Assembly (NCBI RefSeq): GCF_029510815.1
Contig: NZ_CP120360.1
Span: 124,001-188,000 of the forward strand
Length of the DNA stretch: 64,000 bases
Origin: Janibacter sp. DB-40
Lineage (GTDB): Bacteria > Actinomycetota > Actinomycetes > Actinomycetales > Dermatophilaceae
Direction: 5' to 3'
Program-made: the position numbers and the translations under genes
Part shown: positions 5,370 to 55,760 of the stretch, piece after piece
Numbering within the stretch: position 1 is the stretch's first letter
Layout of the letters: every line of letters starts with the position of its first letter
Notes under the pieces: generated by a model
What the model was told of the DNA's origin: nothing
The model's input: only the letters and a program-made list of their open reading frames with translations
Databases searched by the model: none

Positions 5370-5487
5370 CGCAACTGCTTAGGCTCTTGCGGCTCTTCCT
5401 GCGCAACTGCTTAGGCTCTTGCGGCCCTTCCTGCGCAACTGCTTAGGCTCTTGCGGCTCTTCCTGCGCAACTGCTTAGGCTCCTGCG
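5370..5487 (+). repeat. Array A: four 22-bp CGCA-N14-TGCG dyad elements, 32-bp period
   Basis: Copies lie at 5370-5391, 5402-5423, 5434-5455 and 5466-5487, each starting exactly 32 bp after the last. The core is GCAACTGCTTAGGCTCYTGC, with the last copy ending CCTGCG instead of CTTGCG. The 10-bp spacers are near-identical to each other (GCTCTTCCTG type). The element is an imperfect palindrome: CGCA and TGCG ends, GC pairs inside, and TA at the centre. The array starts one base after the malic enzyme stop and ends about 50 bp before the next gene on the same strand. Confidence 0.9.
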
Positions 5488-5537
5488 AAGGAGGAGGCCG
5501 GGCAGGCGGAGCCGGTGCGGATGGCAGGCTGGGTCAC

Positions 5538-6317
5538 GTGAGCAGCTCACCGACCTACCGCAAGGACACCTCCGCCGCGCCTCGTGGCTACTCCTCCTGG
5601 GAGGCCGCGGGGCTGCTGTGGCTCGCCGAGGCCGAGGCGGACGGCGGAGCGCACGTCGCCGAGCTGAGGGACGTCGACGTCACCCACATCGACCTCGCGA
5701 AGTACGTCCCGGCCCCCTCGACCAATGTCGCGGCCGACGAGTTCGGGGCGGCCCTGGCGGCCACCCACGCCGCCGGGGCTCCCGCCTTCGGCGCGCCGCC
5801 CGCGCGGTGGACGAGCCACGGGTTCATCGGCCCGGGGGACGCCCCGATGCCGATGCCGGTGGAGCCGACGGAGACGTGGGGTGCCTTCTTCGCCGAGCAG
5901 CGCATCCGCCACATGCTGCGCGCCGGCCGCTCCCAGGGGCTGTGGGAGGAGGAGGGCGAGCTCTTCGAGCGCGTCGCCACCCGCCTCGAGTCCGGTGAGT
6001 TCGACGACGACCGCCCACCCGCGCGCATCCACGGTGACCTGTGGGCCGGCAACGTGCTGTGGACCCGCAAGGGCGCCGTGCTCATCGACCCCGCCGCCCA
6101 CGGCGGCCACCCCGAGACCGACCTCGCGATGCTGCTGCTCTTCACCGCCCCGCACATCGCGCGCATCATCGCCGCCTACGACGAGGCCGCGCCCTTGGCG
6201 GACGGCTGGCAGGAGCGGGTCGGGCTGCACCAGCTCTTCCCGGTGATGGTCCACGCCGTGATCTTCGGTGGCGGCTACGTCCAGCAGGCCGTGGAGATGG
6301 CGCGCAAGTACGCCTGA
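5538..6317 (+). CDS. Fructosamine kinase family protein
   Basis: A 259-residue aminoglycoside-phosphotransferase-like kinase of the fructosamine/ketosamine-3-kinase family, which phosphorylates sugar adducts on protein amines and so starts protein deglycation. Visible signatures are the catalytic-loop motif RIHGDLWAGNVLW with its Asp, the following metal-binding VLIDPAAHGGHPETDLAML, and the family's WGAFFAEQRI region in the middle. The N-lobe is short, about 30 residues before the conserved core. I place the start at GTG 5538; a longer frame would run into the repeat array and encode repeat-derived peptide. It is codirectional with the malic enzyme, but the array separates them and could affect read-through. 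Confidence 0.85.
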   Translation: MSSSPTYRKDTSAAPRGYSSWEAAGLLWLAEAEADGGAHVAELRDVDVTHIDLAKYVPAPSTNVAADEFGAALAATHAAGAPAFGAPPARWTSHGFIGPGDAPMPMPVEPTETWGAFFAEQRIRHMLRAGRSQGLWEEEGELFERVATRLESGEFDDDRPPARIHGDLWAGNVLWTRKGAVLIDPAAHGGHPETDLAMLLLFTAPHIARIIAAYDEAAPLADGWQERVGLHQLFPVMVHAVIFGGGYVQQAVEMARKYA

Positions 6318-6320
6318 CCC

Positions 6321-8096
6321 TCACCCGCGGTACAGCGCCTCGATCTCCTCGGCGTAGCGCTCGTTGATCGGCTTGCGGCGCAGCTTGAGCGTCGGGGTGA
6401 GCACGTCGCTGCCGGGCGCCCAGTACTCGGGGAGCACCCTGAAGCGCTTGACCTGCTCGATGCGGGAGAGCTTGGCGTTCCCCGCCTCGATGCCCTTGTC
6501 GACCTCGGCGACGAGCTCCGGGTGCTCCGCGAGGACGGCCGGGTCCGCGGGGGCACCGACCCGCTCGGCGAAGGCGGCGGCCGCGTCCGGGTCCAGCGTC
6601 ACCAGCGCGACGTTGTAGGGGCGGCCGTCACCCACGACGGTCAGCGTCGCGGCGAGCGGGGTGGTCACCTTGAGCGTGTTCTCGATCATCGACGGGGACA
6701 TGTTCTTGCCGGACGCGTTGATGATCAGCTCCTTCTTGCGGTCGGTGATCGTCAGGTACCCGTCCGCGTCGATCGTCCCGACGTCCCCGGTGTGCAGCCA
6801 GCCGTCGGCGTCGATGGTCTCGGCGGTCTTCTCCGGGTCGCCCCGGTAGCCGGGTGTCACGCAGTCCCCGCGGAAGAGCAGCTCGCCGTCATCGGCGATC
6901 CGCATCTCGAAGCCGGGCAGCGCCGGGCCGACGGTCCCCACCTTCGCCCGACCCGGCGGGTTGATCGTCCCGGCGCCGGCGATCTCCGACATGCCCCAGA
7001 TCTCGCACACGTCGATGCCCAGACCCATGAAGAAACGCAGCGTCTCGGGGGCGATCGCCGCAGCGCCCGACCAGGACCACCGCAGCTGGTCGAGGCCGAG
7101 CGCGCCCCGGACCTTGCTCAGCACCAGCCGGTCGGCGAGTATCAGCTGCACCGCGTCGAGGCCCTTCAGCCGCTTGCCGTCCAGCAACGCGCCGCCCTGC
7201 TTGTCGGCCATCCGCAGCGCCCAGGCGCCCAGCCTCCGCTTCACCGGGCTCTCGTCCGCCGCGACCTTCGCCTCGATGCCCATCTTGATCTTCTCCCACA
7301 CCCGGGGCACGGCGAACCAGACCGTCGGTCGGGCGTCGGGCAGCGCGGTCGCGATCTCCCGCGGGTCGGCGATGTAGGTGACCTGCACCCCCCTGGCCAC
7401 GTTGAAGTACTGCGCCGACGCCCGGTCGGCGATGTGCGCGGCCGGCAGGAAGGAGGTGATGCGGTCACCGAAGCGCACGTCGACGACGCCCTCGGCGCCG
7501 TGGAGCACGGCGAGCAGGTTGCGGTGGGTGAGCTGGACCCCCTTCGGCGGGCCGGTGGTGCCGGAGGTGTAGATCAGGGTGAGCACGTCGTCCGGCTGCA
7601 CCGCGCGCCAGGCGGCCTCGAAGTCGAAGTCGGGATCACCCAGGCCCTCGAGTTCGGCCAGGGTGTGGGTCGCGCCCTCGGGTGTGCCGTCGACGACGAC
7701 GACGTGGTCGAGGGCGACCCCGGAGCCGAGGATCGCCCCCAACAGGGCGGTCTCGGTGACCGCGATCCGGTTGCCCGCGTTGCCGAAGAGGTACTCGACC
7801 TGCTCCGGTGCCGACGTGTTGTAGATCGAGAAGGGGGTCATCCCCAGGTGCATCGCGCCAGCATCGACCCAGGCGAACTCGGGTCGGTTGGAGAGCATGA
7901 TCCCGAGCGTGTCCCCGTGCCGGTACCCGAGTGCGGCCAGGCCTGCGGCCACCGCGCGCACGTGGTCGCCGTACTCCGCCCACGTGACCGAGACGGCGTC
8001 CCCCGGCGTCCGCAGCGCCACCGCCCCCGGGTCGACGGTCAGGGTCTGCTGGAAGGCTTCACAGAGGGTGGCGGCAGCCATGGGGGTCTCCATCAC
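6321..8096 (-). CDS. Long-chain fatty acid-CoA ligase (FadD15-like)
   Basis: A 591-residue ANL-superfamily adenylating enzyme that activates fatty acids to acyl-CoA through an acyl-AMP. The AMP-binding P-loop is LIYTSGTTGPPKG at about residue 175, the second core motif is WGMSEIAGAGTIN, and the hinge region reads GWLHTGDVGTIDADGYLTITDRKKELIINASGKN. The length and the full C-terminal domain fit the AMP-forming long-chain acyl-CoA synthetases that actinobacteria annotate as FadD15. The start used is the first Met of MMETPMAAATL; the later Met of MAAATL is equally possible. It converges with the fructosamine kinase gene three bases away and is divergent from the sensor kinase locus. Confidence 0.92.
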   Translation of the reverse strand: MMETPMAAATLCEAFQQTLTVDPGAVALRTPGDAVSVTWAEYGDHVRAVAAGLAALGYRHGDTLGIMLSNRPEFAWVDAGAMHLGMTPFSIYNTSAPEQVEYLFGNAGNRIAVTETALLGAILGSGVALDHVVVVDGTPEGATHTLAELEGLGDPDFDFEAAWRAVQPDDVLTLIYTSGTTGPPKGVQLTHRNLLAVLHGAEGVVDVRFGDRITSFLPAAHIADRASAQYFNVARGVQVTYIADPREIATALPDARPTVWFAVPRVWEKIKMGIEAKVAADESPVKRRLGAWALRMADKQGGALLDGKRLKGLDAVQLILADRLVLSKVRGALGLDQLRWSWSGAAAIAPETLRFFMGLGIDVCEIWGMSEIAGAGTINPPGRAKVGTVGPALPGFEMRIADDGELLFRGDCVTPGYRGDPEKTAETIDADGWLHTGDVGTIDADGYLTITDRKKELIINASGKNMSPSMIENTLKVTTPLAATLTVVGDGRPYNVALVTLDPDAAAAFAERVGAPADPAVLAEHPELVAEVDKGIEAGNAKLSRIEQVKRFRVLPEYWAPGSDVLTPTLKLRRKPINERYAEEIEALYRG

Positions 8097-8185
8097 AGGT
8101 GCCCTCTACGGTGAGGGCCGTACCAAAGAGTAGGTCCGGCGGTCGCCGCACGACAAGGACACCGACGCAGCACCACGCGGCATGG

Positions 8186-8207
8186 CGAAGGGGGAGAACC
8201 CCCTTCG
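8186..8207. repeat. GAAGGGGG inverted repeat upstream of a sensor kinase gene
   Basis: CGAAGGGGG and CCCCCTTCG are perfect 9-bp arms around a 4-base loop (AGAA). The hairpin lies between the divergent acyl-CoA ligase and sensor kinase genes, about 50 bp before the kinase GTG. Here the frequent GAAGGGGG word is paired with its own complement. It could be a leader hairpin or an operator. Confidence 0.6.
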
Positions 8208-8259
8208 TCCTGGGGAGAACTCGGCAGACCGGGGCGGCGCCGGCTGCGAGAGTTGTCCC

Positions 8260-9558
8260 GTGACCACACAGACGATGAATCCACCACTGGAGCGGCTGGA
8301 GCGCCCCGGCCTCGGGCGACGCTGGCTCGCCGGCTGGGGCAGTGTGCTCCTCCTCGTCACGAGCATCCTCACCTCGGTCGTGGCGATGGTCTTCACGGCG
8401 CTCGTCATCGGCGCGACGGTGGCCATCACCGCGGGCGGCATCGGCCTGCTCCTGCTCATCCCCCTCGTGTGGCTCGCCGGCATCATCGGCCACGCCGAGC
8501 GGCACCGCATCGTCGCCCTCTCCGGTCGTCGCGTGCACCCGCCGGCGCGACGGGAGCAGCCGTGGTGGCGGCGGCTCCTCCTCGACGAGCACTCGTGGCG
8601 CAGCGTCGCCTACCTGGCGCTGCACTCGCTGTGGGGCTTCGTCACCGGCTGGCTGACCGTGCTCGTCCTCGCCCAGACGCTCCTGCTGCTGATCGTCCCG
8701 GTGCTCAGCGGACGCTCGCCCGAGCAGGGGTTTGAGATCTACGGGCTCGTGGAGGTGCAGGGCTTCACGGCGCTCGCGATCACCTGGGTGTCCGCCCTCG
8801 TCGTCCTGATCCTGCTGCCCCTCGTCGCCCACCTGCTCACCTCGGTCGACATCGTGCTCGCCCGCTGGCTGCTCGGGCGGGACGAGCGCAAGGTCCTCGA
8901 GCACCTCACGGCCCGCGTCGACACCCTCACCGACTCCCGCCGCGAGGCCGTCGACTCCGTTGAGGCCGAGCGCCGCCGGATCGAGCGGGACCTGCACGAC
9001 GGGCCGCAGCAGCGCATGGTCTCCATCGCGATGACCCTCGGCATGGCCAAGCAGGCGCTCCACGACGACCCGGAGTCCGCGGCCGGGCTCATCGACGAGG
9101 CACACCGCTCCGCCAAGGAGGCCATCGTCGAGATGCGCCACGTCGCCCGCGGCATCGTCCCGCCGATCCTCGCCGACCGGGGTCTGGAGGCCGCGCTCCC
9201 CGCGCTCGCGGCCCGGTCCGCCGTCCCGGTGTCGGTGGACGTGCGCGACGTCGGCCGGCTCGACCCCACGACCGAGGCGATCGCCTACTTCGTCGTCAGC
9301 GAGGCCCTGACCAATGTCGCCAAGCACTCCGGTGCCGAGCACGCCCGGGTGGACGTCACCCGAGACGAGGAGCACCTGACGACCGTCGTCACCGACGACG
9401 GCCGCGGCGGCGCCGATCCCGCGCGGGGCACCGGCCTGACCGGACTGCGCCAGCGGGTCACCGCCGTCGACGGCACCCTCGAGGTGCACTCCCCGCACGG
9501 CGGACCGACCCGACTGACCGCAACCCTCCCCCTTCGCACCGGACGGAGCCTGTCATGA
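8260..9558 (+). CDS. Sensor histidine kinase (NarL/DesK-type)
   Basis: A 432-residue membrane sensor. The first ~210 residues hold a putative-sensor region with paired hydrophobic stretches (LLLVTSILTSVVAMVFTALVIGATVAITAGG; FVTGWLTVLVLAQTLLLLIVPVL; and a third near residue 180). A HisKA_3 dimerisation helix follows with the phospho-accepting His at about residue 246 in RRIERDLHDGPQQRM. The C-terminal ATPase domain has an N-box (SEALTNVAKHSGAEHA) and G-box (DDGRGGADPARGTGLTGLRQR). GTG 8260 and the in-frame ATG 8275 are the plausible starts; an earlier ATG at 8182 lies before the GAAGGGGG hairpin and is unlikely. Its stop overlaps the ATG of the response regulator (ATGA at 9555-9558). The signal is unknown. 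Confidence 0.9.
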   Translation: MTTQTMNPPLERLERPGLGRRWLAGWGSVLLLVTSILTSVVAMVFTALVIGATVAITAGGIGLLLLIPLVWLAGIIGHAERHRIVALSGRRVHPPARREQPWWRRLLLDEHSWRSVAYLALHSLWGFVTGWLTVLVLAQTLLLLIVPVLSGRSPEQGFEIYGLVEVQGFTALAITWVSALVVLILLPLVAHLLTSVDIVLARWLLGRDERKVLEHLTARVDTLTDSRREAVDSVEAERRRIERDLHDGPQQRMVSIAMTLGMAKQALHDDPESAAGLIDEAHRSAKEAIVEMRHVARGIVPPILADRGLEAALPALAARSAVPVSVDVRDVGRLDPTTEAIAYFVVSEALTNVAKHSGAEHARVDVTRDEEHLTTVVTDDGRGGADPARGTGLTGLRQRVTAVDGTLEVHSPHGGPTRLTATLPLRTGRSLS

Positions 9559-10220
9559 GCGAGACCCCCACCAAGGTCGTGCTGGCCGAGGACTCCGTCC
9601 TCCTGCGTGACGGGATCGTGCGCCTGCTGACATCGGCCGGCTTCGAGGTCGCGGCGGCATGCCCGGACGGCGAGACCTTCCTGGCGGCCGTGGAGGAGCA
9701 CCGGCCCGACCTCGTCGTCGTGGACGTGCGAATGCCCCCGACCTTCACCTCCGAGGGGATCGTCGCCGCACTCAAGGTCCGCGACAGCCACCCCGACACG
9801 GCCGTGATGGTGCTCAGCCAGTACGTCGAGGAGCAGTACGCGACCGAGCTCGTCGCCTCGAAGTCGAAGGGGGTCGGGTACCTCCTCAAGGACCGCGTCG
9901 CCGACACGAGCGACTTCATCGCCGCGCTGCGGGACGTCGCGGGCGGCGGCACGGTCCTCGACCCCGACGTCGTCACCCAGCTGCTGACCCGGGCCCGCCA
10001 CGCGGACCCGCTCGCGGCGCTCACCCCGCGCGAGCGGGACGTGCTCGACCTGATGGCCCAGGGCCGGACGAACTCCGCGATCGCCAAGGAGCTCTTCGTC
10101 TCCCACGGGGCCGTGGAGAAGCACGTGACCTCCATCTTCACCAAGCTCGACCTGCCGCCCGCAGACGGTGACCACCGCCGCGTGCTCGCCGTGCTCCGCT
10201 GGCTCGACCAGGAGGACTGA
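9555..10220 (+). CDS. NarL-family response regulator
   Basis: A 221-residue two-domain regulator. The receiver domain has the acidic pocket (VLAEDSVLLRDGI) and the phospho-accepting Asp at about residue 57 in VVVDVRMPP, then the conserved Lys (GVGYLLKDRV). The C-terminal LuxR-type HTH begins near LTPRERDVLDLMAQGRTNSAI, with the recognition helix in SHGAVEKHVTSIFTKLDL. It overlaps the kinase gene by four bases and is followed after three bases by the membrane protein gene, so the three are co-transcribed. It is the natural partner of the adjacent kinase and may regulate its own operon. Confidence 0.93.
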   Translation: MSETPTKVVLAEDSVLLRDGIVRLLTSAGFEVAAACPDGETFLAAVEEHRPDLVVVDVRMPPTFTSEGIVAALKVRDSHPDTAVMVLSQYVEEQYATELVASKSKGVGYLLKDRVADTSDFIAALRDVAGGGTVLDPDVVTQLLTRARHADPLAALTPRERDVLDLMAQGRTNSAIAKELFVSHGAVEKHVTSIFTKLDLPPADGDHRRVLAVLRWLDQED

Positions 10221-10223
10221 CCG

Positions 10224-16692: not shown

Positions 16693-16797
16693 CGCAGGAG
16701 CCTAAGCAGTTGCGGACTTGGGGGCCCGGGTATTCGCAAGAGCCTAAGCAGTTGCGGACTTGGGGGCCTGGTTTTCGCAAGAGCCTGAGCAGTTGCG
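16693..16797 (-). repeat. Array B: three dyad elements, 41-42-bp period
   Basis: Copies in reverse orientation lie at 16693-16714, 16735-16756 and 16776-16797. Spacers share GACTTGGGGGCC-type sequence. The third copy has CCTGAGC instead of CCTAAGC. The array fills the gap between the convergent regulator and Fpg/Nei genes, ending 13 bp before the Fpg stop. Confidence 0.9.
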
Positions 16798-28889: not shown

Positions 28890-28974
28890 CGCAACTGCTT
28901 GGGCTCCTGCGAGCAGGGCGGCGCAACTGCTTGGGCTCCTGCGAGCAGGTGCCGCAACTGCTTAGGCTCTTGCG
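28890..28974 (+). repeat. Array C: three dyad elements, 31-32-bp period
   Basis: Copies lie at 28890-28911, 28922-28943 (both with CTTGGGC centres) and 28953-28974. This is the only array in a divergent intergenic region, where it occupies 85 of 137 bp between two start codons and so overlaps the likely promoters. Confidence 0.9.
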
Positions 28975-37793: not shown

Positions 37794-40700
37794 TCAGGCC
37801 GTGGGCGGGACCGGGCCCTCGGCGCTCGTCTCCACGACGTCGGCACCGGCGGCAGGAGGCATCCCGGCCCCGCCCGCACCGGCCGGCGGCCCGGCGACGT
37901 CGTCCACGGTCCCCGTGGCCCGGTCCGTCCCGGGGAAGCGGCGCAGGTCGAGGGTGACCGGGAAGTCGGTCACGGCCGGGCCCAGGCTCGCGAGCGGGTC
38001 CGGCAGCGCGGCGACGTCGACCGGTCCGGGGGTGTGCCCGCCGACGACGAAGCGCGCCGCACGGCGGGACTCGGCAGCCGCCGCGTTGACGGGGAAGGTG
38101 CTGTAGGAGATCCCTCCCGGGTGGGTCACGTGGTGGGTGAAGCCGCCGAGCGAGCGCCCGGACCACCGGTCGACGAGGTCGAAGACGAGCGGGCCGTGCA
38201 CGCCGATCGTCGGGTGCAGCGCGGACGGCGGCGCCCACGCGCGGAAACGGACCCCGCCGACGAAGGCGCCGGTGCTCCCCTTCGCCCCGACCGGCCCGCC
38301 CCAGCCCTGCTCGGCGACCGGGACCATCGGGACGGGGACGCCGTTGCACGTGAGCACGTGCCGGCCCTCGACGAGGCCGACGGCGCGGACCTGGACCTTC
38401 TCCACGGAGGAGTCGACGTAGCGGGCGGTGCCGGACTGGCTGACCTCCTCACCGAGGACGTGCCACGGCTCGATCGCGCTCCGCAGCTCCAGCTCGACTC
38501 CGCCGACGACCGTGTCCCCGAGCCGCGGGAAGCGGAACTCCAGGAAGGAGTCGAACCACTCCGGGTCGAGCTGTCCCACGCCCTGCGACCCCAGGTAGCG
38601 GTTGACGTCGTCGAGGACGTCCCGCAGGTCGGCGGCGACGAAGGCCGGCAGCAGGTACCGGTCGTGCAGGCGGGTGCCCCAGTGCACGAGCGGGGCGGAG
38701 TAGGGCTCGTCCCAGAACTTCGCGACGAGGGAGCGCACGAGCAGCGCCTGCAGCAACGCCATCCGCGGGTGCGGGGGCATCTCGAAGCCGCGCATCTCGA
38801 GCAGCCCGAGGCGCCCCCGCTCGCTGCCGGGGGCGAAGAGCTTGTCGATGCAGAACTCCGCGCGGTGGGTGTTGCCGGTGACGTCGGTGAGCAGGTGCCG
38901 CAGCAGGCGGTCGACGAGCCACGGCCGGGTGTGCCGCCTGACGTGGTGGTCCTCGGTCAGCGGCTCGGTGATGTCCTGCGCGTCGTGCTCCATCGCCAGG
39001 ACGTGGTCCATCTGGGCGAAGGCGATCTCGAGCTCGTAGAGCGTGTCCGAGCGGCCCTCGTCCACGCGCGGTGCCTGCGACGTCGGCCCGATGAAGCGCC
39101 CGGAGAAGAGGTAGCTCAGCGCCGGGTGGTGCTGCCAGTAGGTCACGAGCGAGCGCAGCAGGTCGGGGCGGCGCAGCAGCGGGCTGTCGGCGGGGGTGCG
39201 GCCGCCGAGGGTCAGGTGGTTGCCGCCGCCGGTGCCGGTGTGCGAGCCGTCGAGCTCGAACTTCTCGCTCGCCAGGTGGATCTGGCGGGCGTGCTCGTGC
39301 ACGGACTCGGTCTGCTCCACCAGCTCGGCCCACGAGGAGGTGGGGGAGACGTTGACCTCGATGACGCCGGGGTCGGGCGTGACGGACATGGTGCGCACCC
39401 GCTCGTCACCGGGAGGGGGGTAGCCCTCGAGGACGACCGGCTGCCCGACCTCGGCCGCGGCGCCCTCGACGGCCGCGATGAGCCCGACGGCGTCCTCGAG
39501 GTCCTCGAGCGGGGGCAGGAAGACGAAGAGGTGACCGTCGCGGTGCTCCACGGCCAGCGCGGTCCGCGGCGCCTCCTCGATCGGGATCACCTGTGCGGGA
39601 GCTCGCAACTGCCCAGGCTCCTGCGCAGTGGCCGCCCCCTCACCCTGCAACTGCCTAGGCTCCTGCGCGGTGGCTGCCCCCTCACCCTGCAACTGCTTAG
39701 GCTCTTGCGAATTGAAGGCCCTGTCGCCGTGCAACTGCCTAGGCTCCTGCGAAGGGGGGTCGGCGGCGGGCAGCGCTCCGCGCGGGGCGAAGGGGGACCG
39801 CTCCGGCGTGGTCGGCCCCTCACCCCACGCGATGGAGCCGAGCGGCAGGCGCAGACCGGCCGGCGAGTCGCCGGGGACGAGGGCGAGGAAGCCGCGACGG
39901 GTCCGCCACGTCGTCGTCGCCCAGCCCTCGCCGTCGGGGGCGGGGAAGACCGGCAGCACCCACGCGGCCGGCGTGTCCGCGTCGACGGACTCGTCCACCC
40001 CGGCCACGTGGGCCGCCCGGGCCCGCTCGTCGGCCAGCTCCGGGGAGTCCGGGGTCAGGTCGCCCGCGGTGGGCCGCTCGCCCGCCGGCAGACGAGCCTC
40101 CGTGACGAGCCGCTGAAGCGGGTCCTCGACGGCCGCGGCGAGGTGCGCGACGTCGATCCCGAGCCGGCGGGAGATCGCGACGGCGAGGTCGCGGGCGGCG
40201 CCGACGGCCTCCGGCGATCCGGAGTCGAGGCGCTCCTCGCCCCACGGGTCGTCGAGGAGGTCGGGGTCGCTCCACAGCGGCTGCCCGTCGGTGCGGTCGG
40301 CGAGCATGATCTGCCAGCGGGGCAGGGGCTCACCCGGGTACCACTTGCCCTGGCCGTGGTGACGCAGCGTGCCGGGACCGGACAGCCGCCGCGCGAGCGC
40401 CATGGCCAGGGCGCGCTTCTGCTCGCCGTCGGCCGCGGTGTGCCACTGCGGGTCGGTCGTGCCCCCGGCCGCGACGAAGGTCGGCTCGCCGCCCATGGTC
40501 AGGCGGACGTCCCCCTTCGCCAGCAGGTCGTCGACCGCCTCGCCGACGGCGGTGATCCGGGACCACTGCCCGTCGTCGACCGGTTTGGTGACGCGGGGGT
40601 CCTCGGCCAGGCGGGTGACGGTGTTGGCGAAGTCGAAGTCGACGCCGACGGGGCCGGTGGCACCGCTGATCGGGGCGGCGGAGGAGGGGTGCGGGGTGCA

Positions 40701-41543
40701 CGAGAGGGGGATGTGCCCCTCGCCGCAGAGCAGCCCGGACGTCGCGTCGAGGCCGACCCAACCCGCGCCGGGGACGTAGACCTCGGCCCACGCGTGCAGA
40801 TCGGTGAAGTCCTCCTCCGGCCCGCTGGGGCCGTCGACCGCGGCCTGGTCGGTGCTCAGCTGCACGAGGTACCCGGAGACGAAGCGGGCGGCCAGCCCGA
40901 GGTGGCGCAGCGCCGCGACGAGCAGCCAGGCGCTGTCGCGGCACGAGCCGATGCCGCGGTCGAGGGTGTGGGCGGGCGTCTGCACGCCGGCCTCGAGGCG
41001 GACCGTGTAGTCGACGCTCTCGCGGATGGCGCGGTTGAGGCCGACGAGGAAGCCGACGATCGGGGTGCCGGTGCCCACGGCCGCGTCCCGGGGGGCGGTG
41101 AGCAGCGAGGGCAGCCGCTCCTCGAGCCAGGCGACGACGTCGGGGGATGTCGCGGCGTCCCCACGACCCCCTTCGTCGCCCACGGGGTGGAGGTACGGGG
41201 CGAGGTCGCCGCGCAGCTGCTCCGGGTAGGCGAAGGGGAAGGTGGCCGCCCAGTCCTCGACGAAGAAGTCGAAGGGGTTGATGACCGTCATGTCCGCGAG
41301 CAGGTCGACGGTGACCTCGAGGTGGTCGACCTTGTCCGGGAAGACGACGCGCGCCAGCCAGTTGCCGAAGGGGTCCTGCTGCCAGTTGACGAAGTGGTTC
41401 TCCGGCTCGATCCGCAGGGAGTAGCTCGGGATCGGCGTGCGCGAGTGCGGCGCCGGGCGCAGCCGGATCGTGTGCGGATAGACCTGCACGGGCTCGCTGA
41501 AGCGATAACTCGTGCGGTGCTCGAGGGCCACGCGGATGGTCAC
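37794..41543 (-). CDS. Transglutaminase-like/DUF2126 protein with in-frame repeat array
   Basis: A 1249-residue protein. Residues ~1-310 form a bacterial transglutaminase: an N-terminal beta domain (VTIRVALEHRTSYRFSEPVQVYPHTIRLRP), the catalytic Cys in GSCRDSAWLLVAALRHLG, His in DLHAWAEVYVPGAGWVGLDATSG, and its Asp. The remainder is DUF2126, with LTMGGEPTFVA, LGGRTPADSPLLRRPDLLRSL and NTHRAEFCIDKLF. Such transglutaminase-DUF2126 fusions are usual and often sit with a DUF403/ATP-grasp pair, absent here. Unusual is an insert at about residues 598-647 encoding four QEPxQL-centred units of 14 residues, in DUF2126 between SIAWGE and RTALAVEHRDGHLFVFLPP. GTG 41543 is the natural start; longer frames are not conserved. 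Confidence 0.88.
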   Translation of the reverse strand: MTIRVALEHRTSYRFSEPVQVYPHTIRLRPAPHSRTPIPSYSLRIEPENHFVNWQQDPFGNWLARVVFPDKVDHLEVTVDLLADMTVINPFDFFVEDWAATFPFAYPEQLRGDLAPYLHPVGDEGGRGDAATSPDVVAWLEERLPSLLTAPRDAAVGTGTPIVGFLVGLNRAIRESVDYTVRLEAGVQTPAHTLDRGIGSCRDSAWLLVAALRHLGLAARFVSGYLVQLSTDQAAVDGPSGPEEDFTDLHAWAEVYVPGAGWVGLDATSGLLCGEGHIPLSCTPHPSSAAPISGATGPVGVDFDFANTVTRLAEDPRVTKPVDDGQWSRITAVGEAVDDLLAKGDVRLTMGGEPTFVAAGGTTDPQWHTAADGEQKRALAMALARRLSGPGTLRHHGQGKWYPGEPLPRWQIMLADRTDGQPLWSDPDLLDDPWGEERLDSGSPEAVGAARDLAVAISRRLGIDVAHLAAAVEDPLQRLVTEARLPAGERPTAGDLTPDSPELADERARAAHVAGVDESVDADTPAAWVLPVFPAPDGEGWATTTWRTRRGFLALVPGDSPAGLRLPLGSIAWGEGPTTPERSPFAPRGALPAADPPSQEPRQLHGDRAFNSQEPKQLQGEGAATAQEPRQLQGEGAATAQEPGQLRAPAQVIPIEEAPRTALAVEHRDGHLFVFLPPLEDLEDAVGLIAAVEGAAAEVGQPVVLEGYPPPGDERVRTMSVTPDPGVIEVNVSPTSSWAELVEQTESVHEHARQIHLASEKFELDGSHTGTGGGNHLTLGGRTPADSPLLRRPDLLRSLVTYWQHHPALSYLFSGRFIGPTSQAPRVDEGRSDTLYELEIAFAQMDHVLAMEHDAQDITEPLTEDHHVRRHTRPWLVDRLLRHLLTDVTGNTHRAEFCIDKLFAPGSERGRLGLLEMRGFEMPPHPRMALLQALLVRSLVAKFWDEPYSAPLVHWGTRLHDRYLLPAFVAADLRDVLDDVNRYLGSQGVGQLDPEWFDSFLEFRFPRLGDTVVGGVELELRSAIEPWHVLGEEVSQSGTARYVDSSVEKVQVRAVGLVEGRHVLTCNGVPVPMVPVAEQGWGGPVGAKGSTGAFVGGVRFRAWAPPSALHPTIGVHGPLVFDLVDRWSGRSLGGFTHHVTHPGGISYSTFPVNAAAAESRRAARFVVGGHTPGPVDVAALPDPLASLGPAVTDFPVTLDLRRFPGTDRATGTVDDVAGPPAGAGGAGMPPAAGADVVETSAEGPVPPTA
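39604..39751 (+). repeat. Array D: four dyad elements, 42-bp period, inside DUF2126 gene
   Basis: Copies lie at 39604-39625, 39646-39667, 39688-39709 and 39730-39751, exactly 42 bp apart, which is 14 codons. Three have the fully palindromic centre CCTAGG or a CCCAGG variant, and one has CTTAGG. Spacers of copies 1 and 2 share GTGGCYGCCCCCTCACCC, so units duplicated with their spacer. The host gene is on the other strand and stays in frame. Confidence 0.92.
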
Positions 41544-41612
41544 CCGCCCACTGTAGGCGCGGGTGGGGTGCCGGATGACGGGACGAGGAGCCCTGTCGGC
41601 GACAATGCGGGG

Positions 41613-42785
41613 ATGACCGCTGTCCCGACCACGCCCGTCTGGCGCCTGCCCGGGATGCCGGTCCTGCTCGTGGCCACGGTGGCCGGCTTCAGCGGTTTCT
41701 CCGCCCTCATGCCGGTCGCGCCGCTCTGGGCCGCCCAGGGCGGCGCGGACTCGGCGGGTGTCGGGGCCGTCAACGGCGTCCTCATGCTCTTCACGGTGCT
41801 CACCCAGCCCTTCGTCCCCGTGGCGGTGCGACGGTGGGGGTGGGGCCCGGTCATGGCCGCCGGTCAGCTGCTGCTCGGCCTGCCCGCGCTGCTCCACCTC
41901 GTCGCCGACGAGCTGTCGTGGGTCCTCCTCCTCGCGGCCGTGCGCGGCCTGGGCTTCGGGGTCCTCACCGTCACCGGCAGCGCCGCGGTGGCGAATCTCG
42001 TCGACCCCCGCCGGCGCGGTCAGGCGGTGGGCGTCTACGGGCTGGCCATCGCGGCCCCGCAGGTGGTCTTCATGCCGATCGGCCCGTGGCTGGCGCAGGA
42101 GATCGGCTTCTGGCTGGTCTTCGCGGCCGGGGCGCTGCCGGTCGTCGGCGCCGTCCCCGCGTGGCTCGCCGGCCGGTCCCTCGTCGTCGAGCCCGACGAC
42201 TCGCCCGTGACGCACTCGCGGGCGCAGGTCTACCGCTCGCTCGTGCGCGCGATGCTCCTGCTGCTGGGCGTCACCCTCGCCGGCGGCGCGCTCATCACCT
42301 TCTCCAGCGACCTCGCCGGTGCGGCCTGGCTCGCGACCGTGGCGCTGCTCGTGCTCACCGGCGCCGCCGCCGTGACCCGGTGGAAGATGGGCGCGCTCGC
42401 CGACATCTACGGGACCCGCCCCTTCCTGTGGCCGCTCGTGCTCGTCACGAGCACGGGGCTCGTCCTCGTCGCGGTGTCCCTCACCCGGGACGGGGCAGCG
42501 GCCGCGGTCCTGCTCCTGCTCGGCGTCCTGTGCGTCGGCATCTCCTACGGCGCGCTGCAGAACCTCACCCTGCTCCTCGCCTTCGCCTCCGTCTCCCGGC
42601 GTGACTACGGCACGGCGAGCGCGGTGTGGAACGTCGGCTTCGACGCCGGCACCGGCCTCGGCTCGGTCCTCGTCGGTGCGATCGCCGCCGGGGCGTCGCT
42701 CACGGAGGCGCTGCTCGTGGCGGCGGTGCTCTCGCTGGCCACCCTGCCCCTGGCGCTGGTGCGGGGACGCCCCGCAACTGCTTAG
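41613..42785 (+). CDS. Major facilitator superfamily transporter
   Basis: A 390-residue transporter with about 12 hydrophobic segments, opening VWRLPGMPVLLVATVAGFSGFSALMPVAPLW. The MFS loop pattern is represented by the cytoplasmic RRWGWGPVMAAGQ and DPRRRGQAVGVYGLAIAAPQVVF, and VSRRDYGTASAVWNVGFDAGTGLG in the second half. The substrate is unknown. It is divergent from the DUF2126 gene, 69 bp away. Its last codons are GCA ACT GCT TAG, i.e. the stop codon is the TAG at the centre of the first dyad element of array E; the native C-terminus may have been shortened by arrival of the array. Confidence 0.85.
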   Translation: MTAVPTTPVWRLPGMPVLLVATVAGFSGFSALMPVAPLWAAQGGADSAGVGAVNGVLMLFTVLTQPFVPVAVRRWGWGPVMAAGQLLLGLPALLHLVADELSWVLLLAAVRGLGFGVLTVTGSAAVANLVDPRRRGQAVGVYGLAIAAPQVVFMPIGPWLAQEIGFWLVFAAGALPVVGAVPAWLAGRSLVVEPDDSPVTHSRAQVYRSLVRAMLLLLGVTLAGGALITFSSDLAGAAWLATVALLVLTGAAAVTRWKMGALADIYGTRPFLWPLVLVTSTGLVLVAVSLTRDGAAAAVLLLLGVLCVGISYGALQNLTLLLAFASVSRRDYGTASAVWNVGFDAGTGLGSVLVGAIAAGASLTEALLVAAVLSLATLPLALVRGRPATA

Positions 42786-42855
42786 GCTCCTGCGCGTCCG
42801 GTCGCAACTGCTTAGGCTCCTGCGAGGTCCGGGCGCAACTGCTTAGGCTCCTGCG
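42773..42855 (+). repeat. Array E: three dyad elements, 30-31-bp period
   Basis: Copies lie at 42773-42794, 42803-42824 and 42834-42855. The first overlaps the end of the MFS gene and supplies its stop. The array is followed at once by a GAAGGGGG hairpin and sits between convergent genes. Confidence 0.92.
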
Positions 42856-49607: not shown

Positions 49608-49608
49608 C

Positions 49609-51466: not shown

Positions 51467-52798
51467 GTGATCGACCTCAAGTTCCTGCGCGACCAGCCCG
51501 ACACCGTCCGAGCGAGCCAGCGTGCCCGCGGCGAGGACCCTTCCCTCGTCGACGCGGTTCTCGCCGCCGACGAGCGGCGCCGCACCGCGATCGGGGCCTT
51601 CGAGTCCGCCCGCGCGGAGCAGAAGGCCGCGAGCAAGGAGCTCGGGCCCGTCATGGGTCGACTGAACAAGCTGCGCAAGAGCGATGCCGACAGCGCCGAC
51701 CTCCCCGCCCTCGAGACCGAGGCGAACTCCCTGCGGGAGAAGGGCGCTGCCATGTCCGCCCGCGTCAAGGAGCTCGAGGCCGCAGCCGATGCGGCGAAGG
51801 GAGAGCTGGACACCTCCCTTCGCGCCATCGGCAATGTCATCCAGGAGGGCGTGCCCGCCGGTGGTGAGGACGACTTCGCGCTCCTGACGGAGGTCGGGAC
51901 CGCGCGCGACTTCGCGGCGGAGGGCTTCGAGCCCAGGGACCACCTCGCGCTCGGCGAGCTGCTCGGTGCGATCGACATGGAGCGCGGGGCGAAGGTCAGC
52001 GGCAGCCGCTTCTACTACCTCAAGGGCATCGGTGCGCGCCTGGAGTGGGCGCTGATGGGTCTGGCGCAGCAGATCGCGACCGAGGAGGGCTTCACCCCGC
52101 TCGTCGTGCCCAACCTCGTGCGTGCGGAGACGATGGCGGGGGCCGGCTTCCTCGACGAGCACGACGACGAGGTCTACCAGCTGCCCGCCGACGACCTGTA
52201 CCTCACCGGGACCTCCGAGGTCGCGCTCGCCGGCTTCCACGCGGACGAGATCCTCGACCTGAGCGACGGGCCGCTGCGCTACGCCGCCACCTCCACCTGC
52301 TACCGCCGCGAGGCCGGCAGCTACGGCAAGGACACCCGCGGCATCTTCCGCGTCCACCAGTTCCAGAAGACCGAGATGTTCGTCTTCTGCCGCCCGGAGG
52401 ACGCCGTCGCCGAGCACGAGAACCTGCTGCGCATCGAGCGCCGCGTCCTCGACGCCCTCGAGCTGCCCTACCGCGTCATCGACGTCGCCGCCGGTGACCT
52501 CGGCGGCCCGGCGTCGCGCAAGTACGACTGCGAGGCGTGGGTGCCGACCCAGGCGAAGTACCGCGAGCTGACCTCGACGAGCAACTGCACGACCTTCCAG
52601 GCGCGCCGTCTGGACATCCGCGAGCGCGACCCGCAGGGCTCGGGCACCCGCACGCTCGCCACGCTCAACGGCACCGCGATCACCAGCACCCGCCCGATCG
52701 TCGCCCTCCTGGAGAACCACCAGCAGGCCGACGGCTCCGTGCGCGTGCCGGAGGCGCTGCGCCCCTTCCTCGGCACGGACGTGATGTCACCGCGCTGA
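51467..52798 (+). CDS. serS: Seryl-tRNA synthetase
   Basis: A 443-residue class II synthetase. The N-terminal coiled-coil arm that contacts tRNA spans about 25-115 ([24 protein letters not shown] and following). Motif 2 is [18 protein letters not shown] and motif 3 is [33 protein letters not shown] marks the active site. GTG 51467 gives the family's normal MIDLKFLRD beginning. I see no T-box or other riboswitch before it. Confidence 0.96.
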
Positions 52799-52910
52799 CC
52801 CCGGCACGCGGTCGTGGGCGCACCCGCCAGGACCGCGAAGGGGGTCCCACCCCTCCGTATTCATCTCGCCGGGTTACGTTTGGGACACGAACGTCGATGA
52901 GGAGGGTGCA

Positions 52911-55649
52911 TTGAACCTGGCAATGCGGCATCTTCCGTCGGGTACCAACGACCCGGTGGGTCGCACCCGCCTCATCACGTCGGTGACGGCCCGGGTCCTG
53001 GAGGGACAGGCCGTCGCCGTCCACGGTCCCCGCGGCATGGGGCGCAGCACCTTCCTCGCCGCGGTCACCGCCGGCGTCCCGCACCCGATCAGCGTGCGGC
53101 TGCAGCGCCGGGGTGTGCCCGGCCACGGGGTCTCGGTCGTCGCCGCCGCGTTCCCTCAGGCGACCCTCGACGAGCTGCCCGACCGGATGCGCTCCCTCCT
53201 GCTCGACCCCCGGACGCTGCCGGCCACCGATGCCGCGGAGCGCCTCGGCGATGCCCTCACCGAGCTGCTCACCGCCCAGGCGGCCACGGCCCCCTTCGTC
53301 CTCGTCCTCGACGACGCGCAGCACCTGGATGCGGTGAGCCTGGCGGCGCTGCGGGCCGCGGCCTCGCGCTCCCTGGGACCCGGCGCCTTTGGCGCCCTCG
53401 TGGCCGTCGGTCCGGCGGAGGTCGATCCGACGACGGGGCACCCGCGCACGGTCACGGCCCGGGAGCTGTCGCTGCTGCACGTGGACCTGCAGCCCTTCGC
53501 GGCGGCCGACACGGTCGAGCTGCTCGCCGCGCACGACGTGCCGACCGACACCGCCCTGTGGGCGCACCGCGAGTCCGGCGGCAACCCCGGCCTGGCCCGC
53601 GAGATCGCCGCGGCCGTCGACGGACTCCCTCCCGAGGAGGCGGCCCGCCAGCTGGGTGGCCTCGCGCGCGCCCGCGTCCACGGGCTGACCGAGCCGGTGC
53701 GCGCCACCCTCCAGCGGGTTGCGGCGATGCACCAGCCGACGACGGCGATACTCCAGCGCATCGGCGGCGAGACCGCCGTTGCGAGCATCCGCGCGGCCCG
53801 GGCCCTCGGCCTGCTCGTCACCGAGGACGAGTACCTACGACTCACCCCTGAGGCCCTCGGCGACGTCCTCCTGGAGTCCGTGGACAGCGACGAGCTGATC
53901 GCCCTGCACCGCGAGCTCGCCGAGCACGCCGACAGCGAGGGCCTGACCCGGTACCACCTCGCCCTCGCCGGCGACACCGGGACGACCCCCGCCGACCTCG
54001 CCGCCGCCGCGACCGGGTGCGCCTCCAGGGGCGAGCACGACCTCGCCGCCCAGCTGTACCTGCTGGCTGCGGACGCCGGGACGCCCGAGCGGGACGAGTG
54101 GCTCACCCTCAGCCTGGAGAACGCCGTCATCGGCAAGGAGACCCGGGTGCTGCACCGGGCCACCCGTGCCGCAGCGGACCTGACCGAGCCCAGCCTGTCC
54201 GTGCGCGCCAAGCTCGCTCTCGTCGAGCTCGGGGACAGCGCCCCCGACGAGATCCTCGTCGCCGCCCTGTACGAGTCCCGCGACGACCCGACGCTGCAGG
54301 CCCGCGTGCACCTGCAGCGCGCCCGCCTCCTCGCCGGCAGCAACGACCTGCGCTCCGCCATGGACACCGCCGGCCGCGCGGTCGAGCTGGCCCGGCGCGC
54401 CGGCCGCACCGACATCGAGGTCGACGCCCTGACCGTGGGGGCCGCGGTCGGCCGGACCCTCGGCGACCCGGACGCCCGCCGGCTGATGGAGGAGGCGGCG
54501 GCGCTCGCGGGTGACCCGAGGCCCGGCCAGGTGCACACCTCCGCGCGCTACATCGCGGCACGCTTCTCGCTCCACGACGACGACCTGCGCCGGGCGCGCG
54601 CGGCCTTCGTCGACATGCTCGCCGATGTCGGTCCCGACGCCGGCTACGACACCGTGCACGTGCTGCGCTCGCTCGTCGAGGTCGTCGCGCGGCAGGGCCG
54701 TGGTCGCGAGGCCCTCGAGCTCGCCGGCCGCGCCACCCGCGCGGCGACGCACTTCGACACCCCGGTGGCGACCACGTGGTTCATCGAGGAGATCGCCGAG
54801 AGCGTCGGCGGCACCTTCGAGCGCACCCGCGTCGTCAGCTCGCGCGGCGTCGACCTCGCTCGCCGCGAGCGCGACCAGCGCTACCTGCGGCGCCACCTCG
54901 CCCACCTCGGCCTCGCGCTGCTGCACCTCGACGACCTCGAGGGCGCGGTCGGGGTCTACCGGGAGCTGCGTCGCCTGGACGCCGACTCCGGGATCCGCGA
55001 CCTGACCTCCGTCCGGTGGCACACCGACGCCGTGACGGCACTGGTGCTCGGCGGCGAGGTCGACGAGGCCGACGGCCTGCTCGCCGAGGTGCGCGCCGGT
55101 CTCGACGATGGGATGGGTGCCCCCGGCGTGGCCGCCGCCGCCGACCGGGCCGCCGCGGAGATCGCCGCCGCCCGCGGCGACCTGGACACCGCGCGCACGC
55201 TGGCGACGCGCTCCATCACCGCCGCGGAGGAGCACCGACTGCCCATCGAGCTGGCCCGCTCCCTCGTCACCCTGGCGCACATCGAGCGCCGCGCCCGCCG
55301 CGGTGGCCGCAGCCGCGAGGCCGCGGCCCGGGCCCGCGAGGTGCTGCGGCCGCTGCACGCGGTGCCGTGGGCGGAGTGGGTCAACGCGCGCTTCCCCGAG
55401 GGCGCCGCGCTGCACACTCTCGAGCTCGAGGAGCCGGAGGGCACCGCCGACCCGCTCGGCGACCTCACCCTCACCGAGCAGCAGGTCGCCGGGCTCGTCG
55501 CCGAGGGCGCGAGCAACCGCGAGATCGCCCAGCGCCTGCACCTGAGCGTCAAGACCGTCGAGGGCAGCCTGACCCGGATCTACCGCAAGACCGGCGTGCG
55601 CTCACGCACCCAGCTGGCCACGCTCGTCCTCGGCCACGGCCCCCGCTGA
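52911..55649 (+). CDS. Large LuxR-family ATPase regulator (LAL type)
   Basis: A 912-residue protein. An N-terminal ATPase has Walker A GPRGMGRST near residues 38-46 and Walker B FVLVLDDAQHLD near 130. A long Ala-rich helical middle, 300-820, shows TPR-like spacing (for example AAQLYLLAADAG and AVGVYRELRRLD). A LuxR HTH ends it (LTEQQVAGLVAEGASNREIAQRLHLSVKTVEGSLTRIYRKTG). Such LAL regulators are usually activated by small molecules; the target is unknown. TTG 52911 is preferred because AGGAGG at 52899-52904 is correctly spaced for it; ATG 52923 would be 18 bases away. Confidence 0.9.
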   Translation: MNLAMRHLPSGTNDPVGRTRLITSVTARVLEGQAVAVHGPRGMGRSTFLAAVTAGVPHPISVRLQRRGVPGHGVSVVAAAFPQATLDELPDRMRSLLLDPRTLPATDAAERLGDALTELLTAQAATAPFVLVLDDAQHLDAVSLAALRAAASRSLGPGAFGALVAVGPAEVDPTTGHPRTVTARELSLLHVDLQPFAAADTVELLAAHDVPTDTALWAHRESGGNPGLAREIAAAVDGLPPEEAARQLGGLARARVHGLTEPVRATLQRVAAMHQPTTAILQRIGGETAVASIRAARALGLLVTEDEYLRLTPEALGDVLLESVDSDELIALHRELAEHADSEGLTRYHLALAGDTGTTPADLAAAATGCASRGEHDLAAQLYLLAADAGTPERDEWLTLSLENAVIGKETRVLHRATRAAADLTEPSLSVRAKLALVELGDSAPDEILVAALYESRDDPTLQARVHLQRARLLAGSNDLRSAMDTAGRAVELARRAGRTDIEVDALTVGAAVGRTLGDPDARRLMEEAAALAGDPRPGQVHTSARYIAARFSLHDDDLRRARAAFVDMLADVGPDAGYDTVHVLRSLVEVVARQGRGREALELAGRATRAATHFDTPVATTWFIEEIAESVGGTFERTRVVSSRGVDLARRERDQRYLRRHLAHLGLALLHLDDLEGAVGVYRELRRLDADSGIRDLTSVRWHTDAVTALVLGGEVDEADGLLAEVRAGLDDGMGAPGVAAAADRAAAEIAAARGDLDTARTLATRSITAAEEHRLPIELARSLVTLAHIERRARRGGRSREAAARAREVLRPLHAVPWAEWVNARFPEGAALHTLELEEPEGTADPLGDLTLTEQQVAGLVAEGASNREIAQRLHLSVKTVEGSLTRIYRKTGVRSRTQLATLVLGHGPR

Positions 55650-55665
55650 CGCGGCCCGCCCCCTT

Positions 55666-55760
55666 CGCAGGAGCCTAAGCAGTTGCGCAAGGAGAGGCTT
55701 GGGGGTTGCAGGAGCCTAAGCAGTTGCGAAGGGTGGGCTGCAGGAGCCTAAGCAGTTGCG
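55666..55760 (-). repeat. Array F: three dyad elements, mixed 41- and 32-bp spacing
   Basis: Reverse-orientation copies lie at 55666-55687, 55707-55728 and 55739-55760. Spacings are 41 and 32 bp, so both spacing classes occur in one array. It fills the gap between the convergent LuxR regulator and DedA genes. Confidence 0.92.

What the first reader, a model, noticed from the sequence alone, without database searches (positions are those of the whole stretch)
5370..55760. Twenty copies of a phased 22-bp dyad element in six arrays
Seen directly: six arrays of three or four copies of an imperfect palindrome, CGCA-N14-TGCG (core GCAACTGCYTAGGCTCYTGC), at 5370-5487, 16693-16797, 28890-28974, 39604-39751, 42773-42855 and 55666-55760. 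Spacings are 32/32/32, 42/41, 32/31, 42/42/42, 30/31 and 41/32 bp. These fall into two classes about 10.5 bp apart, i.e. three or four helical turns, so every copy would face the same side of the DNA. Spacer sequences are not conserved between arrays. This looks like a set of binding sites for a dimeric protein that assembles cooperatively (chromosome organisation, partition, or a broad regulator), or RNA elements processed by an unknown factor. I know of no described element with this sequence and geometry.
Basis: partly seen in the sequence, partly recalled or inferred. Interest (0 to 1): 0.88.

Follow-up and report, generated by a model that had tools for sequence, protein, structure and literature searches.

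The report
Phased palindromes paired with a nuclease
The six repeat clusters belong to a genome-wide family of short palindromes that appears to be tied to one gene for a DNA-binding, DNA-cutting protein, and several related bacteria show their own matched pair of palindrome and gene, which would make this an unrelated counterpart of a known class of 'domesticated' mobile repeats.

Summary
In detail: all 20 copies and spacings check out. The genome (Janibacter) has 163 strict copies (204 by a relaxed scan of the 580 kb held) in 64 arrays; first spacings are 30-32 or 40-43 bp in 54 of 56 multi-copy arrays. One window array lies inside a gene, in frame. Relatives carry the same architecture (CGCA-N14-TGCG, about 31 or 42 bp apart) with different palindromic cores. 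The key lies outside the window: a gene for an AbiEi-type DNA-binding protein fused to a Vsr-like nuclease sits between two of these arrays. Of 14 homologues from 11 genomes, 13 have palindromes on both sides, 1 on one side; in 10 of 10 genomes examined the dispersed elements resemble the gene's own palindromes (three with base changes). Among 13 Janibacter genomes with a hisC hit, 9 of 9 with the gene are element-rich; 4 of 4 without it have 0, 0, 0 and 7 CGCA pairs. Three drafts with elements lack the gene, and also hisC. No RAYT was found. Best reading: a REP/RAYT-like system built on an unrelated nuclease whose AbiEi part binds phased dyads cooperatively. Binding, cutting and mobilisation are inferred, not shown. 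My searches found no paper linking these nucleases to palindromes.

The parts
5371..5486 (+). Array 1: four 20-bp dyads (5371, 5403, 5435, 5467), spacing 32/32/32; starts 2 bp after a called + gene's stop; absent at this site from the sister genome G006 and from G001
16694..16796 (-). Array 2: three dyads (16694, 16736, 16777), spacing 42/41; between a called + gene and the Nei/Fpg-like gene (convergent); no dyad at this site in G006, which has CCCCCTTCGCC there
28891..28973 (+). Array 3: three dyads (28891, 28923, 28954), spacing 32/31; between called divergent genes; G006 has two copies here, G001 none
39605..39750 (+). Array 4: four dyads (39605, 39647, 39689, 39731), spacing 42/42/42; inside and antisense to the DUF2126 CDS, in frame, encoding a 14-aa repeat around QEPxQL; G006 has three copies; G005, G010 and G013 have a 26-bp linker instead, G001 a 38-bp one
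37794..42215 (-). ORF of the DUF2126/transglutaminase-like protein that carries array 4 in frame. The true start is probably nearer 41530: the first 228 residues have no Pfam match and overlap a + strand MFS-like ORF
42774..42854 (+). Array 5: three dyads (42774, 42804, 42835), spacing 30/31; the first dyad supplies the TAG stop (42783-42785) of a + strand MFS-like ORF that my gene caller missed; G006 has four copies at 32/32/32
55667..55759 (-). Array 6: three dyads (55667, 55708, 55740), spacing 41/32; convergent site downstream of a DedA-like gene; G006 has two copies, G001 one (CCCCCTTCGCA...TGCAAGGGGGG) at the same place

Best explanation
The dyads are dispersed, non-autonomous copies of palindromes that flank one gene elsewhere in the genome (G000:C1:2822788-2823726). 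It encodes a 313-aa protein: an AbiEi-type region (winged helix first) fused to a Vsr-like nuclease. Shown: the gene lies between two dyad arrays; homologues in other species lie between palindromes with their own cores; dispersed cores resemble gene cores; elements and gene mostly occur and are missing together. Inferred: dimers of the AbiEi part bind each 22-bp dyad, and because dyads sit about three or four helical turns apart, neighbouring dimers bind the same face and assemble cooperatively. At its own promoter this would repress the gene. Inferred more weakly: the nuclease cuts or nicks near dyads, and repair from other copies adds, removes and seeds units. This would explain tandem units with array-specific spacers, copy-number differences between sister genomes, and whole arrays gained or lost. 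In effect it is a REP/RAYT-like system with an unrelated enzyme.
For: Location: the gene starts 86 bp from a 4-copy array and ends 10 bp from a 6-copy array. Homologues: 14 genes from 9 Janibacter genomes and 2 genomes of another genus; 13 of 14 have palindromes on both sides in the flanks read (190-350 bp), G010 on one side only. Generic flank test: 20 of 24 homologues and 15 of 18 remoter paralogues exceed the best of 60 random genes. Core matching: dispersed and gene-flanking cores agree in 10 of 10 genomes examined (G000, G002, G006, G007, G008, G010, G012, G013, G015, G091), in G002, G007 and G010 only up to one or more base changes. Co-occurrence: of 13 Janibacter genomes where hisC, the usual neighbour, was found, 9 with the gene have at least 8 phased pairs by one of two patterns and 4 without have 0, 0, 0 and 7 CGCA pairs (Fisher p=0.0014 by hand, cut-off chosen after seeing the counts, species not independent). 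Outside Janibacter the clade at E<=1e-50 occurs in 2 of 170 genomes, and the only genome with more than 2 phased pairs (18) is one of them. Protein: AbiEi models hit 13 of 14, MTES_1575 nuclease 14 of 14 at E<=0.01; profile matches to solved structures: an endonuclease-like protein (3hrl, E=0.0013), a mobile-intron protein (3r3p, E=0.11), an abortive-infection protein (6y8q, E=0.72); D241, E252, D254 and K258, which fit a PD-(D/E)XK site as I recall it, are invariant in 62 sequences. Precedent: AbiEi binds two 23-bp inverted repeats with positive cooperativity (PMC7319586, passages).
Against: No binding, cutting or movement was observed. Another AbiEi-type protein, Rv2827c, binds four tandem repeats with negative cooperativity, and published repeat gaps (3, 4 and 13 bp between 23-bp repeats) are not ours. 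The one paralogue palindrome tested is not dispersed (0 copies in 580 kb), so flanking palindromes alone do not imply amplification. A profile search at E<=1e-60 finds homologues in 8 further family genomes that have no CGCA phased pairs. G003 (46 pairs), G014 (21) and G011 (3) carry elements but no gene of this clade was found; all three drafts also lack a hisC hit, so the locus may be unassembled, but G002 and G006 keep the gene away from hisC, so this is not proof. G015's 20/23 TGCA pairs are not far above its reversed-pattern control (12/16), though element-free relatives show only 0-3. In G000 the flanking arrays point the same way, not inverted as in several relatives. No target duplication was found. 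Core distance correlates with protein distance in the winged helix (Mantel r=0.42) but nearly as well in the nuclease (0.39) and the whole protein (0.40), so it shows no domain-specific link. Rayleigh R is as high at 10 and 10.25 bp as at 10.5, and units within an array are not independent.
Confidence: 0.6

Rival explanations
1. The dyads are binding sites of the same AbiEi-nuclease protein, but they serve the host (nucleoid structure, gene insulation, DNA repair), and selection, not nuclease-driven copying, spread them.
For: Two spacing classes across independent arrays, ori-proximal enrichment (KS p=3e-8 for 63 strict arrays), enrichment between convergent genes (31 of 60 intergenic arrays against 67 of 401 gene pairs, p=6e-10), gene next to hisC in 6 of 13 genomes.
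Against: CGCA phased pairs are absent from G004, G005 and G009; two of six window arrays are missing in a sister whose blocks are 93-97% identical; four arrays are called inside coding genes.
Confidence: 0.2
2. The arrays are RNA-level elements: bidirectional transcription terminators or mRNA-protecting hairpins at gene ends.
For: Many arrays lie within 30 bp of the stop codons of convergent genes; outer arms CCCCCTTC...GAAGGGGG resemble words common in 6 of 6 Janibacter samples; one array folds well (z=-4.45).
Against: Folding varied: z -4.45, -2.65, -1.13, -0.99 and -1.90 in the 5 arrays tested of 6. No clear orientation preference in codirectional pairs (13 sense, 10 antisense). Helical phasing is not needed by RNA. 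Nine of 14 gene-flank cores are self-complementary through the centre, where a loop would be free to vary.
Confidence: 0.1
3. Classical REP/BIME elements moved by a RAYT (Y1 HUH transposase).
For: Small, palindromic, mostly extragenic, over 100 copies, species-specific, found in tandem.
Against: No Y1_Tnp match in 16 of 16 Janibacter genomes searched, while the same search rang in 5 of 14 control genomes; by eye no GTAG or CGTC tag is conserved next to the dyad.
Confidence: 0.03
4. The AbiEi-nuclease is a defence or toxin-antitoxin-like regulator; the flanking dyads are only its operator, and the dispersed copies titrate it or are by-products of recombination.
For: AbiEi models from a defence library hit 13 of 14; AbiEi operators are inverted-repeat pairs; a DnaA-box-like motif and dyads sit upstream of the gene.
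Against: Palindromes occur downstream as well as upstream; neighbours read at the Janibacter locus are E1 dehydrogenase (Pfam), hisC and a holin-like gene (names given by me from reading, not by a scan), with no partner toxin seen, though none was searched for.
Confidence: 0.15

Closest known systems
REP/REPIN sequences with RAYT transposases (TnpA-REP)
   Same: Short palindromic extragenic repeats, over 100 copies, species-specific, flanking an enzyme gene; more repeats where the gene is present; tandem arrays; some units inside genes
   Different: Enzyme is an AbiEi-Vsr-like nuclease; no Y1 HUH transposase found (0 of 16 genomes); no GTAG tag; direct tandem arrays in two spacing classes instead of inverted REP pairs
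CGTC-tagged REPs (PMC3733652, abstract and passages)
   Same: REP-like palindromes between convergent or codirectional genes, sometimes inside genes
   Different: Described there as lacking a dedicated transposase and as mostly head-to-head dimers; no CGTC tag on our dyad
AbiEi / Rv2827c antitoxin operators (PMC7319586, passages)
   Same: 23-bp inverted repeats in pairs or tandem upstream of the gene; the protein shares the AbiEi region
   Different: Here fused to a nuclease, repeats on both sides of the gene and dispersed genome-wide, other spacings; no AbiEii partner seen
Vsr-like / homing-type endonucleases (MTES_1575, DUF559, PDB 3hrl, 3r3p)
   Same: Nuclease domain and conserved acidic and lysine residues
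   Different: No intron or mismatch-repair context seen; palindrome-flanked single gene

Membership tests
REP/RAYT | Cognate Y1 (HUH) transposase in the genome | tested here: not met
   PF01797: 0 of 16 Janibacter genomes; rings in 5 of 14 control genomes
REP/RAYT | GTAG (or CGTC) tag beside the palindrome | tested here: not met
   Flanks of the printed arrays show no conserved GTAG/CGTC beside the dyad (read by eye)
REP/RAYT | Many short extragenic palindromes in the genome | tested here: met
   163 strict copies; 60 of 64 arrays extragenic by my gene caller
REP/RAYT | Enzyme gene flanked by the repeats | tested here: met
   13 of 14 clade genes on both sides, 1 on one side
REP/RAYT | Mobilisation of the repeat by the enzyme | not testable with these tools
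   Needs experiment
AbiEi antitoxins | AbiEi domain by profile | tested here: met
   13 of 14 members hit defence-library AbiEi models; PF13338 in 8 of 14 at E<=0.01, the query below its curated cut-off
AbiEi antitoxins | Adjacent AbiEii nucleotidyltransferase toxin | tested here: inconclusive
   None among the neighbours read in G000 and at the hisC loci; no dedicated toxin search was run
Vsr-like / MTES_1575 nucleases | Nuclease domain with intact conserved residues | tested here: met
   PF18741 in 14 of 14 at E<=0.01, the query below the curated cut-off (29.9 of 38.2 bits); D241, E252, D254, K258 invariant in 62 sequences; activity not tested
Insertion sequence / MITE | Terminal inverted repeats with target-site duplication | tested here: inconclusive
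   Inverted palindromes flank several genes; the 3' side of hisC lacks the module in G001, G002, G004, G005, G006 and G009, but no duplication was worked out

The most novel reading that the evidence does not exclude
A large and uncharacterised family of AbiEi-like/Vsr-like nucleases in actinobacteria are palindrome-flanked selfish or domesticated elements. In some lineages one of them has seeded the genome with helically phased dyad arrays, an independent invention of the REP/RAYT lifestyle with a double-strand-DNA nuclease, and palindrome cores co-evolve with the protein. The DnaA-box-like motif before most of the clade genes would tie their activity to replication.
Probability: 0.43. Interest if true: 0.93.

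Novelty: new variant of a known kind. Interest (0 to 1): 0.84.

Why it matters
Some families of bacterial palindromic repeats have no known enzyme; PMC3733652 says so for CGTC REPs (abstract). This is a repeat family with a candidate enzyme that is not a transposase of the known type, found by pairing cores with genes. It gives a direct test of how such repeats arise, it suggests a biology for 'DUF559 / very-short-patch-repair endonuclease' genes, and the species-specific pairs form a natural set for protein-DNA co-evolution.

Tried and rejected
RAYT-driven REPs: rejected, no Y1_Tnp in 16 of 16 genomes. Rfam families and tRNAs in the window: none. The exact core in named GTDB genomes: 0 hits, although records near the window's genome may be hidden. 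Ten window proteins near the arrays as the cognate factor: nothing suitable. Genes beside other close array groups (PucR-type, TetR, Lrp/AsnC, MarR, HetI-like): ordinary families, not followed further. A 'same core in all species' view: wrong; 3 of 16 genomes have the G000 core, yet a core-free pattern finds 3 or more phased pairs in 12 of 16. My first control, 0 of 20 paralogues flanked, tested only CGCA-N14-TGCG-type dyads; a generic test showed that 15 of 18 paralogues have their own palindromes, so that control was dropped as evidence of clade specificity. Two of the 20 paralogue loci (L148, a short contig; L167, a partial hit) and L185 (short contig) were left out. The '1 TGA' flagged for G015 is its normal stop; the ORF is 312 aa. 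In one search the reading frames for L169 and L170 were wrong and were replaced. In one search several loci were misoriented; one search replaces it. The first element scan of relatives was too strict and was replaced. My gene caller extended the DUF2126 gene too far and missed an MFS-like gene, so it filed array 5 as codirectional where it is really convergent; the printed context counts are left as the caller gave them. TGCA-pattern counts have high reversed-pattern controls (4-20); I used element-free relatives (0-3) as the baseline instead. The RNA-structure explanation: folding mixed. The DnaA-box pattern used was chosen after seeing the motif.

Literature searches. None of the papers listed was, by title and abstract, on DUF559/MTES_1575 nucleases with palindromic repeats or on a Janibacter repeat; most lists were capped at 10 to 20 rows and most subscription papers are not held. 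Seen: abstract and passages of PMC3733652; passages only of PMC7319586, PMC3116915, PMC8049555 and PMC3710099. All others: search listing only.


Full report
WHAT IS THERE. The window has 20 copies of GCAACTGCYTAGGCTCYTGC (16 exact, 4 with one mismatch) in six arrays, at the stated places and spacings, against 0.01 expected. The window is C1:124001-188000 of a single-contig genome of 3,351,260 bases; the named close relatives of one window protein are Janibacter. Strict copies number 163 (90 and 73 by strand) with none for the reversed pattern. All 163 are in stretches I held (580 kb), where a relaxed scan gives 204 positions in 64 arrays. Array sizes: 8 with one copy, 10 with two, 25 with three, 11 with four, 5 with five, 4 with six, 1 with eight. 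Relaxed arrays outside the held stretches would be missed.

GEOMETRY. First spacings of 56 multi-copy arrays are 30-32 (20) or 40-43 (34), with one 35 and one 62. R at 10.5 bp is 0.894, but 10 and 10.25 fit as well, so the exact period is not resolved. In samples of eight other genomes, next-neighbour spacings up to 70 bp are 30-32 in 29 of 42, 40-44 in 12 and 62 in 1; control dyads ACG-N14-CGT show no pair within 70 bp in any of the 9 samples. By eye the first copy of an array is often preceded by CCTTC or CCCCCTTC and the last sometimes followed by GAAGGGGG, so the single unit looks like a longer palindrome. At array 6 G001 has one copy, G006 two, G000 three.

CONTEXT. By my own codon-based gene caller, 31 of 60 intergenic arrays lie between convergent genes against 67 of 401 gene pairs (p=6e-10), 23 between codirectional and 6 between divergent genes; 4 of 64 are called inside genes, all antisense. 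The caller is not perfect: at array 5 it missed an MFS-like + strand gene whose TAG stop lies within the first dyad, so that site is convergent. Orientation is neutral: 17 and 14 in convergent sites, 13 sense and 10 antisense in codirectional ones. The array in the DUF2126 gene is in frame because 42 is 3 x 14, and adds QEPxQL-type peptide repeats. C1 starts with an ORF of dnaA size (name inferred, not scanned), so an origin at position 1 is assumed; arrays are then closer to it than uniform (63 strict arrays, median relative distance 0.28, KS p=3e-8).

TURNOVER. G006 is a sister whose aligned blocks are 93-97% identical. Four of the six window arrays are shared but differ in copy number (4 v 3, 3 v 4, 3 v 2, 3 v 2); two are absent from G006.

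SPECIES-SPECIFIC CORES. The G000 core occurs in 3 of 16 Janibacter genomes (163, 64 and 9 copies). A core-free paired pattern, CGCA-N14-TGCG twice at 30-44 bp, finds 3 or more pairs in 12 of 16 Janibacter genomes, 18 in G091 of another genus, and 0-2 in the other 169 of 186 family genomes (reversed controls 0-5). Cores seen: GCAACTGCYTRGGCTCYTGC (G000, G006, G001), GCAACTGCCCGGGCAGTTGC (G002), GCATTTCCCCGGGGAAATGC (G003), GCATTTCCCTAGGGAAATGC (G007), GCATTGCCCTACGGCAATGC (G008), GCACGACCTTAAGGARATGC (G010), GCARRACCCTAGGGTYYTGC (G013). Their symmetry is largely kept while their letters change.

THE GENE. A dense cluster of arrays (G000:C1:2818622-2825234) contains a gene for P0121, 313 aa, 86 bp from a 4-copy array and 10 bp from a 6-copy array. 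Domains: AbiEi_4-like and MTES_1575/DUF559; for P0121 only DUF559 passes its Pfam cut-off, but MTES_1575 is found in 14 of 14 homologues at E<=0.01 and defence-library AbiEi models in 13 of 14. MTES_1575 is described as a Vsr-fold nuclease (PMC3710099, passages). A profile search of solved structures gives an endonuclease-like protein (E=0.0013), a mobile-intron protein (0.11) and two abortive-infection proteins over residues 14-54 (0.69 and 0.72), along with two nanobody-like chains (0.19 and 0.49) that are surely chance; only the first is significant.

GENE AND PALINDROMES GO TOGETHER. In 186 family genomes the clade (single-sequence search, E<=1e-50, at most 12 candidates scored per genome) occurs in 11: nine Janibacter, G090 and G091. 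Of 14 genes, 13 have palindromes on both sides in the flanks read, often inverted between sides; G010 has five copies on one side only. The dispersed elements match the gene-flank core in 10 of 10 genomes examined; in G010 exact copies of the flank core lie only near the gene and the 24 other copies within two mismatches differ by 1-2 bases; in G012, G015 and G091 copies lie well away from the gene (11, 3 and 13 within two mismatches). For G091 the match is to its second gene. G002 has two genes and two dispersed families. Of 13 Janibacter genomes with hisC found, 9 of 9 with the gene are element-rich and 4 of 4 without have 0, 0, 0 and 7 CGCA pairs. G003, G011 and G014 have elements but neither the gene clade nor a hisC hit in their drafts, so they are uninformative or, at worst, exceptions. 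The module sits at the 3' side of hisC in six genomes and that side lacks it in G001, G002, G004, G005, G006 and G009; in G010 a holin-like gene lies between. A profile search of 396 genomes of the order at E<=1e-60 hits 10 genomes in 6 genera, all of the same family; 8 of these are neither Janibacter nor G091 and have no CGCA phased pairs.

IT IS A WIDER PATTERN. A generic test (best match between 300 bp before and after the gene) exceeds the best of 60 random genes (20.5) in 20 of 24 homologues and in 15 of 18 remoter paralogues; random median about 10.5. Nine of 11 remoter loci printed show palindromes on both sides by eye, for example GGCAGCAACCTCTGCTAGCAGAGGTTGCTGCC; G060a and G060b clearly only on one side. 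The one paralogue palindrome tested in G000 is not dispersed (0 in 580 kb, against 187 for the dyad at two mismatches). So flanking palindromes look general, amplification does not.

MECHANISM. Precedent: AbiEi binds two 23-bp inverted repeats with positive cooperativity; Rv2827c binds four tandem repeats but with negative cooperativity (PMC7319586, passages). I infer that this protein's AbiEi part binds each dyad as a dimer and neighbouring dimers touch, which needs whole helical turns. The nuclease, with D241, E252, D254 and K258 invariant in 62 sequences, is the obvious agent for array gain and loss by break and repair. That step is not shown. It works like REP/RAYT: RAYTs are single-copy and vertically inherited, and REPINs are commoner in genomes with a RAYT (PMC8049555, passages); REPIN clusters lie beside RAYTs (PMC3116915, passages). 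It is not a member: no Y1 transposase and no GTAG tag.

LIMITS. The gene was found by looking where arrays are dense; the tests on other genomes came afterwards and are the real support. Gene calls in relatives are six-frame matches. 

Noticed in passing
G000:C1:2822788-2823726 homologues (L138-L146, L154, L168-L171, L178-L181): A DnaA-box-like motif (TGTGGA[ACT]AA or TT[AGT]TCCACA) lies 49-72 bp before the match start in 12 of 14 clade genes and in 4 remoter ones (16 of 24), in either orientation; upstream of 1 of 18 paralogues and of 1 of 380 random genes.
   Followed up: partly
window 39605-39750 in the ORF 37794-42215 (minus strand): The DUF2126 protein carries in-frame 14-aa repeats made by four dyads; close relatives have a short linker there.
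   Followed up: partly
window 42774-42793: The first dyad of array 5 supplies the stop codon of an MFS-like + strand ORF.
   Followed up: no
window and samples of G006, G001, G005, G010, G013: Words of the type CCCCCTTCGC / GCGAAGGGGG are among the commonest 12-mers in 6 of 6 Janibacter samples, with or without the dyads, and look like terminator stems.
   Followed up: no
hisC loci L206-L218: The order of E1 dehydrogenase, module, hisC and holin-like gene differs between species, as if segments had been inverted or moved around the module.
   Followed up: no
G003 (draft relative): G003 carries two dyad families, sometimes mixed in one pair (TTTCCCCGGGGAAA and TTGCCCTACGGCAA cores), yet no gene of the clade was found in its assembly.
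   Followed up: no
L147-L166 (paralogues): Remoter AbiEi-nuclease paralogues have shared palindrome-like sequence on both sides in 15 of 18 cases, some sharing the arms TTCGCAAGAG...CTCTTGCGAA with variants of the window's dyad.
   Followed up: partly
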